Below, one piece after another: positions 33,509 through 37,009 of a stretch of 37,009 bases of DNA. The first letter of the stretch is position 1. Each line of letters begins with the position of its first letter. The translations under genes and the position numbers were made by a program. Origin of the DNA: an uncultured bacterium (GTDB taxonomy: Bacteria > Cyanobacteriota > Vampirovibrionia > Gastranaerophilales > Gastranaerophilaceae). The DNA is taken from positions 1 to 37,009 of the forward strand of contig CACYUI010000021.1 of assembly GCA_902777605.1 (NCBI GenBank). The letters run 5' to 3'. The notes under the pieces are model-generated. The model did no database searches and was not told the DNA's origin. It saw nothing but the letters and a program-made list of their open reading frames with translations.

Positions 33509-33610
33509 CATTTACCCCTTGTAGTTGCAAATTTAACTAAAATACATTTACCTCCAAAATTCTTCATTTACCCCTTGTAGTTGCAAACCCTACCAAAATA
33601 CATTTACCCA
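33509..33610. repeat. Tandem 56-bp repeat between the methyltransferase and the FliD-like gene
   Basis: CATTTACCCCTTGTAGTTGC starts at 33509 and again at 33565. Each copy continues with AAAATACATTTACC, giving two nearly complete 56-bp units and the beginning of a third CATTTACCC at 33601. The first unit's ATTTACCC can also pair with GGGTAAAT at the methyltransferase stop codon (33491-33498). It lies just upstream of the promoter at 33617. No coding potential. Confidence 0.7.
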
Positions 33611-33616
33611 CCCCAC

Positions 33617-33644
33617 TTGAAATAGTTAAAAAATGTGATATAAT
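33617..33644 (+). promoter_or_regulatory. Near-consensus sigma-70 promoter for the FliD-like gene
   Basis: TTGAAA (33617-33622), 16 bp, TATAAT (33639-33644), with an extended -10 TGA directly before it. It gives a leader of about 120 nt to the GTG at 33770. No sigma-28 element is visible in this interval, in contrast to the two orphan genes. Confidence 0.7.
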
Positions 33645-33671
33645 ATTTGTATAAAGTAGCGATGTAATACA

Positions 33672-33687
33672 TGAGCGTATACGCTCA
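33672..33687. promoter_or_regulatory. Perfect 16-bp palindrome in the FliD-like leader
   Basis: TGAGCGTATACGCTCA is a perfect palindrome about 20 bp after the expected transcription start. It could be an operator or a weak RNA hairpin. No T-run follows, so it is not a terminator. Confidence 0.45.
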
Positions 33688-33769
33688 ACAATATTATGGA
33701 AAAATACGATGTTTACCCCAAATATCGACATTGCTGCTAAAATGTAAGTAGTAATACAAGGATTGAATT

Positions 33770-36700
33770 GTGTCTATTTCATTTAGCGGATTAGCATCAG
33801 GTTTAGATACCTCTTCTTGGGTAGAGTCGCTGGTAGCACTCAAGAAGGCAAAGGTTACATCATTGCAAACTCAGGTCAGTGATGTAGAGATTACTCGTGC
33901 TGCCGTAAGTGATATAAAAAACTTTTTCACAACATTCCAATCATCTTTGGAAAAACTAACTGATGCAAAATTTAGTGTGGATAGTATTGACTTATTTATG
34001 CAAAATATAGCCAATACTTCAGATGCTGATGTATTTACTGCTATAGCTTCAACAGAGGCAAAAGAAGGTTCATATAAAATTGTAGTAGAGAAACTTGCAA
34101 GTTATACTGCTGCTTATTCGGATTATAGTTATACAACAACATATACAGAGACAACGACCGCTACTGAAAATTCAACGCTGACATCATTGGGGGTAAGAAT
34201 AGATGGTGCAGCAAGTGTTGGGGTGAAGGTAAATGGGGTAGAGAGAGGCTTGATATTGAGTGAGTTTGAGACAATAGGCTCATTTGTAGACAAGTTGGCA
34301 TCTATAGGGGTAGATGCTTCCTATAATGAAAATTCAGGGATTTTCTCCGTAAATCTTGATATGGGTGATATTAATGATATTGACAATACAGGAATTGTAA
34401 ATGCATTAGGTCTTGTAAAAGTCAATGAAGGTTACCAATCAGGAATTTGGCAGACTGAAGAAACGCAAGATGTTGTAAATGTCGCTACTTTAAATACAAC
34501 TCTTGCGGAACTCGGACGAGGAACGACAATATCAGGGACAAAACAAGTTATTGTTGAAAACTCCAGCGGAGATATTTCAACATTCAATGTTACAGGCACA
34601 ACAACACTCTCTCAATTTATCGCAAATCTTCAAGACTGCGGCTTATATGCAAATCTTACTGAAGATGGTATTTTGGAAATATCAGGCGGTAATATTGTAG
34701 GCGGAAGCTTTGATGCCAAATCAATTTTCGGTTTGGAAGAAGATCCTGTTAGTGCGATGGTTACCGGTAACGAACTTACGACAACGATAATTGTTCCGAA
34801 TAAGGTTGAACTTACAACAAAACTTGTAGAAGACTTAAATATATCAAAAGGCTACTTTGAGATAACGAATCCTGATGGTGATGTTTATTACGAAAAGATT
34901 TATTCAGGAATGACAATTTCTGATTTGATTACCGATTTGGGTAATCTTGGTATCAATGCAAAACTTGATGCAGAGAATGGTATATTGACTATTACAGGCG
35001 GAACATTTGATACTTTAACGGATGCGGAAGTTGTTTCGCTATGTAATAACAATAGAATAACAGAAACTGATGTTAATGACAGAAAAGGCACAAATATGCT
35101 TTCTCTGTTGGGCTTGAATTCTGATGCCAATATTACGGTTTCATTGACAAGAGCTAAATCTAAAGCAATGACATATACAAAGACTGCTGCTGCTGTAGAT
35201 GGTGATGTAATTTCTAATTTTGTAACCTTGCCTAAAAATAAGGATATAACAATACACGAAGAAAACGGTGATGTTATTGGTACTGTTCGTATAGATAATA
35301 ATACTACTTTTGAAGAATTATTCAGCGAATTATCAAATTACGGCATAGACGGTGATATGCATGACGGTGTAATTTTATTCTCTTCTGATAATAAGAGATA
35401 CTTAACAGGTGATGTTATATCAGCCATGGGTGTAGAGGTTAGTTATGTTACAATAACAACAACTACAACTGTTGGAACTCAACAATCAACGCAGGTCAAA
35501 AAATATACAGAAACGGATGTTGCATCTGAAGATAATAAACTTTCGGATTATGGCTTGTCTGGAACTTTGAATATAAAAGACAAAGATGGTAATGTAATAG
35601 GAACATATACTGCGGGAGCAAATGATACTTTTGCAGATATGTTTAATGCAATCGCTGCTTATGGTATGGATGGGGATATAAATGAAGGCAGAGTAACCTT
35701 TGTACATGATTTTGGCGGTTATGTAGATGGTAGTTTGGCTACGGCACTTGGTGTCGGTACATCTTATACAACAGTAATCACGACAACAACTGTTGGTACA
35801 ACAACAACAGGTACGCTCAAAAGGTATACATCTACAGACCTTGCAACAGATGATAACAAACTCTCTGACTTTGGAATCGGCTCAGGCAGAGTGCTGAATG
35901 TCAAAGACAAAGACGGTCATTTAATCGGCTCATTCACAACGGGCGCAAATACAACATTTGGCGAACTGTTTAATGCAATAGCTGCATATGGAATGGACGG
36001 TGACCTCAACGAAGGTAAAGTAACCTTTGTACATGATTTTGGCGGCTATGTAGACGGTACACTCGCAAGCGACTTGGGTGTAACAACGACATATAATACA
36101 GTAACAACATATACAACCGTAGGCTCCCAAACAACAGGAACCTTGAAACAGTATTCCGAAACAGATTATGCAACAGATGATAACAAACTCTCTGACTTTG
36201 GAATAGGCTCAGGTAAAGTATTGAATGTAAAAGATAAAGACGGTCACATAATCGGCTCATTCACAACAGGCGCAAATACAACATTCGGAGAATTGTTTAA
36301 TGCAATAGCTGCATACGGAATGGACGGTGACCTAAACGAAGGTAAAGTAACCTTTGTACATGATTTTGGCGGTTATGTAGACGGCTCATTGGCAGATGCT
36401 CTCGGAGTAAGTATTACATATAATACAGTAACAACATATACAACAGTTGGCTCCCAAACAACAGGAACTTTGAAACAGTATTCCGAAACAGATTATGCAA
36501 CAGATGATAATAAACTTTCAGACTTTGGTATCGGCTCAGGTAAAGTATTGAATGTCAAAGACAAAGACGGTCACATAATCGGCTCATTCACAACAGGTTC
36601 AAATACAACATTTGGCGAACTGTTTAATGCAATAGCTGCATACGGAATGGACGGTGACCTAAACGAAGGTAAAGTAACCTTTGTACATGATTTTGGTGGC

Positions 36701-37009
36701 TATGTAGACGGCTCATTGGCAGATGCTCTCGGAGTAAGTATTACATATAATACCGTAACAACATATACGACCGTAGGTTCGCAAACAACAGGAACTTTGA
36801 AACAGTATTCAGAAACCGACTATGCAACAGACGATAACAAACTCTCTGACTTTGGTATCGGTGCAAATAGAGTGCTGAACGTAAAAGACAAAGACGGAAA
36901 TCTCATAGGTAGCTTTACAACAGGCGCAAATACAACATTTGCAGAATTGTTTAACAAGATAGCAGAATGGGGTATGGATGGCGACTTGAACCAAGGTAAA
37001 GTAACATTC
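33770..37009 (+). CDS. fliD: Large FliD-like hook-associated protein 2 with tandem IN-type repeats (3' end outside window)
   Basis: The frame opens at GTG 33770 (CAAGGA about 8 nt upstream) and is uninterrupted for 1080 codons to the window edge; ordinary FliD is 400-700 aa. The N-terminus (V)SISFSGLASGLDTSSWVES, with heptad-rich helices to ~70, is the FliD_N signature: FliD caps the growing flagellar filament. Several divergent modules follow, each with a 'g-v-i-g-t-f-t...T-f-e-L...I...G-i-d-a...dG...l' pattern typical of the flagellin/hook IN motif. From residue ~465 the modules become an increasingly regular tandem array of 109 aa (327 bp), rich in Thr/Gly/Asp with TTTYTTVGSQTTG linkers. 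No Sec signal is present, in keeping with type III export. It could be a FliD paralogue used as an adhesin-like cap. The C-terminal FliD_C domain, if present, is beyond the window. Confidence 0.8.
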   Translation, partial: MSISFSGLASGLDTSSWVESLVALKKAKVTSLQTQVSDVEITRAAVSDIKNFFTTFQSSLEKLTDAKFSVDSIDLFMQNIANTSDADVFTAIASTEAKEGSYKIVVEKLASYTAAYSDYSYTTTYTETTTATENSTLTSLGVRIDGAASVGVKVNGVERGLILSEFETIGSFVDKLASIGVDASYNENSGIFSVNLDMGDINDIDNTGIVNALGLVKVNEGYQSGIWQTEETQDVVNVATLNTTLAELGRGTTISGTKQVIVENSSGDISTFNVTGTTTLSQFIANLQDCGLYANLTEDGILEISGGNIVGGSFDAKSIFGLEEDPVSAMVTGNELTTTIIVPNKVELTTKLVEDLNISKGYFEITNPDGDVYYEKIYSGMTISDLITDLGNLGINAKLDAENGILTITGGTFDTLTDAEVVSLCNNNRITETDVNDRKGTNMLSLLGLNSDANITVSLTRAKSKAMTYTKTAAAVDGDVISNFVTLPKNKDITIHEENGDVIGTVRIDNNTTFEELFSELSNYGIDGDMHDGVILFSSDNKRYLTGDVISAMGVEVSYVTITTTTTVGTQQSTQVKKYTETDVASEDNKLSDYGLSGTLNIKDKDGNVIGTYTAGANDTFADMFNAIAAYGMDGDINEGRVTFVHDFGGYVDGSLATALGVGTSYTTVITTTTVGTTTTGTLKRYTSTDLATDDNKLSDFGIGSGRVLNVKDKDGHLIGSFTTGANTTFGELFNAIAAYGMDGDLNEGKVTFVHDFGGYVDGTLASDLGVTTTYNTVTTYTTVGSQTTGTLKQYSETDYATDDNKLSDFGIGSGKVLNVKDKDGHIIGSFTTGANTTFGELFNAIAAYGMDGDLNEGKVTFVHDFGGYVDGSLADALGVSITYNTVTTYTTVGSQTTGTLKQYSETDYATDDNKLSDFGIGSGKVLNVKDKDGHIIGSFTTGSNTTFGELFNAIAAYGMDGDLNEGKVTFVHDFGGYVDGSLADALGVSITYNTVTTYTTVGSQTTGTLKQYSETDYATDDNKLSDFGIGANRVLNVKDKDGNLIGSFTTGANTTFAELFNKIAEWGMDGDLNQGKVTF
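35165..37009 (+). repeat. 327-bp tandem repeat array within the FliD-like gene
   Basis: Units begin near 35165 (divergent), 35495 (321 bp), 35816, 36143, 36470 and 36797 (cut by the window end). The marker TGTACATGAT recurs at 35701, 36028, 36355 and 36682, exactly 327 bp apart. A consensus unit is 109 residues: LKQYSETDYATDDNKLSDFG, then VLNVKDKDGHIIGSFTTGAN, then TTFGELFNAIAAYGMDGDLN, EGKVTFVHDFGGYVDGSLAD and a Thr-rich linker. Similarity rises along the array; the third and fourth full-length units differ by one residue. The number of further copies is unknown. Confidence 0.95.

What the first reader, a model, noticed from the sequence alone, without database searches (positions are those of the whole stretch)
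33770..37009. Oversized FliD-like cap protein built from an expanding array of IN-type modules
The N-terminus is clearly FliD-like. The visible 1080 codons already exceed usual FliD length, and the second half is a tandem 109-aa array whose regularity increases downstream. Each unit keeps the strand-turn-helix rhythm of the flagellin/hook IN motif that FliD normally carries once or twice. A cap protein with a long, recombinationally adjustable stalk would project a variable, Thr-rich surface at the filament tip, suggesting adhesion or antigenic length variation. Seen: repeats, N-terminus, open frame. Known: FliD_N and the IN motif. Inferred: stalk role.
Basis: partly seen in the sequence, partly recalled or inferred. 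Interest (0 to 1): 0.8.

Follow-up and report, generated by a model that had tools for sequence, protein, structure and literature searches.

The report
Giant bead-loop flagellar tip protein
A group of uncultured gut bacteria make, beside a normal flagellum-tip cap protein, giant versions up to ten times longer in which dozens of copies of one small domain form two bead-like arms, often around a central adhesin-type block, which suggests that the tip of the flagellum has become a long sticky tether.

Summary
The open frame at 33770-37009 is the 5' part of a giant fliD. It has a FliD_N domain, then an array of head-domain units from residue 124 on (nine units, not only the second half). Its probable other half lies at the end of another contig (C2): seven more units and FliD_C. 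An ortholog with the same upstream genes is one uninterrupted 5,985-aa gene; both window pieces match its two ends.

In three genera of one Gastranaerophilales family, genomes carry an ordinary ~580-aa FliD (two head units) plus giant paralogs. 27 complete frames are 1,200-6,589 aa long (median 3,653). The extra units sit between FliD_N and the ancestral first head unit. Larger giants usually carry GLUG (adhesin-type) blocks in the middle of the array.

AlphaFold models show each unit as a separate domain with the fold of FliD head domain 2 and flagellin/FlgK outer domains, and a complete 1,200-aa giant superposes on Salmonella FliD (Z 23).

Both ends of the array return to the cap, so it should form a loop or two-armed hairpin, not a free stalk. 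Best reading: an exported tip protein displaying a long adhesive loop. Architecture is well supported; adhesion is inferred.

The parts
33636..33769 (+). Conserved leader of giant fliD genes: extended -10 TGATATAAT (33636-33644), long-range stem arms 33656-33665 and 33728-33737, TTTACCCC (33712-33719), AAGGA ribosome site (33758-33762)
   Evidence: Shared with 17 other giant fliD leaders and unlike ordinary fliD leaders; TATAAAGTAGCGATGTAAT has its only exact match in the genome here; stem 89 % paired in 14 sequences against 23-62 % when slid, but only 2 pairs with compensatory change. Suggestive only.
33770..37009 (+). 5' part (1,080 codons) of a giant fliD gene, cut by the contig end; probable 3' part is the 1,120-aa frame at the end of contig C2 (minus strand, L009:11822-15184)
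33797..34102 (+). FliD_N domain
   Evidence: PF02465, 66.8 bits, E 3.5e-18
34139..34447 (+). Head-domain unit N1 (residues 124-226)
   Evidence: unit HMM 57 bits; weak match to the ordinary FliD first unit, 17.5 bits
34463..34786 (+). Unit N2 (232-339)
   Evidence: unit HMM 52 bits
34787..35155 (+). Unit N3 (340-462)
   Evidence: unit HMM 48 bits
35171..35494 (+). Unit N4 (468-575)
   Evidence: unit HMM 69 bits
35498..35818 (+). Unit N5 (577-683)
   Evidence: unit HMM 80 bits
35819..36145 (+). Unit N6 (684-792)
   Evidence: unit HMM 85 bits; 90 % identical to N7
36146..36472 (+). Unit N7 (793-901)
   Evidence: unit HMM 90 bits; 99 % identical to N8; modelled with N8
36473..36799 (+). Unit N8 (902-1010)
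   Evidence: unit HMM 90 bits
36800..37009 (+). Unit N9, cut by the contig end (1011-1080)
   Evidence: unit HMM 56 bits

Best explanation
The gene encodes a giant paralog of the flagellar filament cap FliD. The normal N- and C-terminal FliD frame (export, leg and oligomerisation parts) is kept. Copies of the outer head domain ('head domain 2', D3, IN-type fold) were added by repeated duplication at the junction between FliD_N and the ancestral first head unit. The added domains form two bead-like arms which, in many of the larger members, flank a central block of GLUG repeats of the kind found in adhesins. Because both ends of the array enter the same cap subunit, each subunit should carry a loop or two-armed hairpin with the GLUG part at its outer end. 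Proposed working: the protein is exported by the flagellar type III system, sits at the filament tip in place of or mixed with the ordinary cap, and tethers the cell to mucus, particles or other cells; loop length changes by recombination between near-identical units. Shown: family membership, array anatomy, insertion point, paralogy to the ordinary FliD, central GLUG position in many giants, purifying selection, fold (by prediction). Inferred: export, place at the tip, loop shape, adhesion, recombination.
For: FliD_N and FliD_C at the two ends; window N half and C2 half match the two ends of a syntenic 5,985-aa ortholog (52 % over 310 aa; 43.6 % over 1,102 aa; same upstream dnaJ, propeller and methyltransferase genes). 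Complete ordinary FliDs of the fetched set have two units, complete giants 7-36. Complete giants in the main set have one O2 unit 256-273 aa from the C end and their best O1 unit about 358-385 aa from it in nearly all. Giants and ordinary FliDs split 100/100 in the tree. Two-unit model: two separate ~80-aa domains with pLDDT mostly over 90 and a weak Thr-rich linker; its 23 best VIA-align rows are all flagellar axial proteins (FlgK, flagellin, FliD; Z 3.9-7.7), including P. aeruginosa FliD 109-212, inside head domain 2 (104-230, PMC5072837). Complete 1,200-aa giant: Z 23.1, 423 aligned residues, on Salmonella cap FliD. GLUG blocks lie in the middle; PF07581 79.7, 41.3 and 37.3 bits over a cut-off of 20.5, the last in the ortholog. 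flhB and a sigma factor lie next to the ortholog; nine flagellins above the cut-off in the window's genome. P. aeruginosa FliD is a known mucin adhesin (PMC11374773).
Against: No experiment. The middle of the window's own gene is missing, so GLUG is inferred for it from the ortholog; several complete giants (1,200-2,388 aa, also 3,181 and 3,437 aa) have no GLUG signature. The ordinary FliD in the same genome could do all the capping. Exporting a ~680-kDa subunit through the flagellar channel is demanding. GLUG is a signature, not proof of adhesion. AlphaFold does not fix the arrangement of the beads (pTM 0.44-0.48).
Confidence: 0.62

Rival explanations
1. Secreted or surface adhesin that uses the FliD frame only for export: the giant no longer caps filaments but leaves through the flagellar channel and acts free or bound to the filament side.
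For: An ordinary FliD remains in most sampled genomes of the group; giants form their own well-separated clade.
Against: Leg helices, D1 and both termini stay conserved and superpose on cap FliD along 11-1200; a mere export signal would not need FliD_C.
Confidence: 0.2
2. Alternative cap for a special filament: giants cap filaments made of some of the several flagellins and shape swimming or filament growth; the array is a bulky hydrodynamic or spacing element, not an adhesin.
For: Nine flagellins over the cut-off in the genome; several giants have no GLUG block.
Against: GLUG blocks recur at mid-array in many giants of at least two genera.
Confidence: 0.1
3. Antigenic or phage-decoy surface whose length and sequence vary quickly.
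For: Close relatives differ in length (2,375, 3,181, 3,437 and 3,503 aa on short branches); near-identical neighbouring units.
Against: Strong purifying selection between units (dN well below dS); no strain-level data.
Confidence: 0.07
4. Assembly collapse, chimera or degraded gene.
For: The contig ends inside the repeat.
Against: 27 complete frames, nearly all in different assemblies, one of 6,589 aa lying inside a 443-kb contig; constant end anatomy.
Confidence: 0.01

Closest known systems
Ordinary FliD (HAP2) filament cap, PF02465/PF07195
   Same: FliD_N, FliD_C and head domains; the model of a complete giant superposes on Salmonella cap FliD
   Different: Head domain 2 is expanded from one inserted domain to dozens, often with GLUG blocks; up to 6,589 aa instead of ~580; present beside the ordinary copy
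Giant flagellins with tandem DE regions (Thomson et al. 2018, PMC6248924)
   Same: Enlargement of the outer region of an out-and-back flagellar axial protein by domain duplication; the same topological puzzle
   Different: Flagellin, not cap; over 1,000 aa with two DE copies; filament-wide, not tip only; DE region is a different insert
Flagellin_IN motif, PF07196
   Same: bb-a-bb unit; PF07196 matches 21 of 80 unit pairs (best 1.6e-7) and the C2 half (27.3 bits)
   Different: Longer (~109 aa), long tandem arrays; the window's own N7-N8 pair does not reach the model
GLUG-repeat surface proteins (PF07581; M26 N-terminal region PF05342)
   Same: GLUG repeats over the Pfam cut-off in the giants' centre
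   Different: Carried between two FliD-derived arms; only the repeat region resembles the M26 protein, no catalytic part seen

Membership tests
FliD filament cap | FliD_N domain at the N end | tested here: met
   66.8 bits over 24.8
FliD filament cap | FliD_C domain at the C end of the same chain | tested here: met
   On the C2 half (131.5 bits), colinear with the C end of the complete ortholog; the physical joint C21-C2 itself is not sequenced
FliD filament cap | Cap fold: paired end helices with head inserted between | tested here: met
   Complete 1,200-aa relative, Z 23.1 to 9gnz_U, 423 aligned; predicted model of a relative, not of the window's gene
FliD filament cap | Flagellar genes present | tested here: met
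   Nine flagellins above cut-off; flhB beside the ortholog
FliD filament cap | Oligomeric cap at the filament tip that promotes flagellin insertion | not testable with these tools
   needs microscopy or genetics
Flagellin_IN motif (PF07196) | Profile match of the units | tested here: inconclusive
   C2 half over cut-off, 21 of 80 unit pairs at E<=1; window N7-N8 no match
Flagellar axial outer-domain fold | Unit fold shared with FliD head 2, FlgK and flagellin outer domains | tested here: met
   23 best rows all flagellar, Z 3.9-7.7
GLUG adhesin-type repeat | PF07581 over cut-off in the central block | tested here: inconclusive
   Met in relatives and in the ortholog; the middle of the window's gene is not assembled
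Giant flagellin | Flagellin_N domain | tested here: not met
   The window contig C21 is not among the Flagellin_N matches of the genome

The most novel reading that the evidence does not exclude
A family of flagellar tip proteins in which the filament cap was turned into a giant two-armed loop adhesin, exported through the flagellum, with a dedicated conserved leader RNA controlling it.
Probability: 0.4. Interest if true: 0.88.

Novelty: new variant of a known kind. Interest (0 to 1): 0.8.

Why it matters
FliD is treated as a small, fixed-size cap (~450-700 aa, general knowledge). Here a whole bacterial lineage keeps that cap and adds paralogs of 1,200-6,589 aa made almost only of repeated head domains, often with an adhesin-type centre. 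If exported and tip-located they would be among the largest known substrates of a flagellar export system and would make the tip a polyvalent attachment organ, testing limits on export, cap rotation and motility. They would also suggest how uncultured Gastranaerophilales hold on in the gut and rumen. The series from two units to several dozen is a natural experiment in domain-array growth, and bears on the open question how tandem duplicates fold in out-and-back flagellar proteins (raised in PMC6248924).

Tried and rejected
Assembly artefact or pseudogene: rejected by complete frames in many genomes and dN well below dS. Direct overlap of the C21 and C2 ends: none (no shared 25-mer), so the joint is inferred from the ortholog and some sequence between them is probably missing. 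Ubiquitin-like Pfam hits of the units (UAE_UbL, Ubiquitin_2, OTU1_UBXL): short stretches of a similar bb-a pattern, not evidence of ubiquitin biology. Sequence search of the units against PDB: nothing significant. Foldseek on the two-unit model: no E<=0.001; the VIA second look gave the flagellar cluster. Sigma-28-like promoter: no enrichment upstream of giants, ordinary fliD or own flagellins. Rfam: no match in the window or for the leader. RNAalifold on the leader: no consensus pairs; a named stem scored only moderately. Conserved synteny among giants in general: not found; only the ortholog L051/L184 shares the window's upstream genes. Papers: no giant FliD found; most subscription journals are not covered.

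Full report
What is in the window. The frame 33770-37009 starts with GTG behind AAGGA, has no stop and leaves the contig at codon 1,080. The window is a whole contig (C21) of a 2.0-Mb, 43-contig genome. FliD_N covers 33797-34102 (66.8 bits). An HMM of the 109-aa unit, iterated on relatives, finds nine units from residue 124 to the end. Adjacent identities rise from 15-37 % to 70-99 % and fall to 84 % at the cut last unit; dN is far below dS.

The other half. The genome has two FliD_N places (C21, C11) and two FliD_C places (C11, C2). C11 is the ordinary FliD (~585 aa). C21 has FliD_N without FliD_C and leaves its contig at the 3' end; C2 has FliD_C without FliD_N and leaves its contig at the 5' end, with seven units and the same residue rhythm at the break (GKVTF / VMTF). 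Relative L051 carries the same upstream genes as the window (dnaJ 87 %, propeller 71 %, methyltransferase 79 %), followed by one frame of 5,985 aa (L184). The window part matches its N end (52 % over 310 aa), the C2 part its C end (43.6 % over 1,102 aa, E 0). C21 and C2 are therefore best read as the ends of one gene, probably with a missing middle. Downstream of the ortholog lie flhB and a sigma factor.

Spread. Nearly all of the sampled genomes of the genus have an ordinary FliD, and many also have giants. In the listed matches of order and class samples (383 and 382 genomes), frames over 1,000 aa occur only in three genera (g1, g31, g44) of one family; the others are mostly about 475-800 aa, with some shorter frames that may be cut by contig ends (the lists are cut at weak E-values). 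Named relatives are 'Candidatus Gastranaerophilales', Melainabacteria or uncultured-bacterium assemblies, several from rumen or gut. 27 complete giants measure 1,200-6,589 aa, median 3,653. The largest lies inside a 443-kb contig.

Anatomy and origin. Complete ordinary FliDs of the fetched set have two units, O1 and O2. Giants keep one strong O2 256-273 aa from the C end and, in nearly all, their best O1-like unit about 358-385 aa from it; the additional units lie between FliD_N and O1 (L033 has its O1 further away, L143 has its best O1 score elsewhere, and a few show extra weak O2 matches). Giants and ordinary copies are separated with full support (one long-branch row). In most larger members, non-unit blocks of about 170-1,640 aa lie in the middle, with 3-14 units before and 3-18 after; these are GLUG-rich in most, while L032/L036 carry other inserts and L046, L150 and the smaller giants none.

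Structure. Two window units fold as separate ~80-aa domains (pLDDT mostly over 90) joined by weakly predicted Thr-rich linkers. The 23 best VIA-align rows are all flagellar: FlgK, flagellins and FliDs, Z 3.9-7.7. The match in P. aeruginosa FliD (109-212) lies in head domain 2 (104-230), itself a loop insertion in head domain 1 (PMC5072837). A complete 1,200-aa giant superposes on Salmonella cap FliD with Z 23.1 over 423 residues from 11 to 1200. So the array sits inside the head, both ends anchored. Thomson et al. discuss the same folding problem for giant flagellins (PMC6248924).

How it probably works (inference). Export through the flagellum, folding outside into beads, a place at the tip with or instead of the ordinary cap, a long loop reaching out, and a GLUG centre that binds. 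FliD is a known mucin adhesin in P. aeruginosa (PMC11374773). Length can change by recombination between near-identical units; close relatives range from 2,375 to 3,503 aa. The ordinary FliD probably keeps the basic capping job.

Leader. The window and 17 other giants share a leader with an extended -10, TTTACCCC and a possible closing stem; ordinary fliD leaders differ. Its core has one exact match in the genome. Compensatory evidence is thin.

Limits. The genomes are mostly metagenome assemblies; no strain comparison; bead arrangement not predicted with confidence; central GLUG not seen in the window's own gene; literature search limited to open papers.

Noticed in passing
window 33636-33769; leaders of L053, L062, L066, L079 and others: Conserved ~130-nt leader upstream of giant fliD genes with TTTACCCC and a possible long-range stem; no Rfam family; absent from ordinary fliD leaders. 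Could be a cis-regulatory RNA.
   Followed up: partly
window 33511-33605: Repeated TTTACCCCTTGTAGTTGCAAA-like segments just upstream of the leader, echoing the TTTACCCC of the leader.
   Followed up: no
L010:3074-8557 (C11): 1,827-aa LysM protein encoded near the ordinary fliD.
   Followed up: no
G014:C24, G014:C8, G003:C74, G018:C2, G008:C15: Flagellin_N frames of 1,342-1,801 aa in the same genus: giant flagellins may accompany giant caps.
   Followed up: no
L032 1034-1202 and 4001-4189, L036 3893-4074 (protein coordinates): Other inserts without clear Pfam family in the giants of 5,406 and 4,940 aa, each followed directly by a second, smaller giant fliD (L033, L035).
   Followed up: partly
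L066 (RUG13389): A 1,530-aa giant whose C end is unlike FliD_C (long branch in the tree); possible frameshift or altered end.
   Followed up: no
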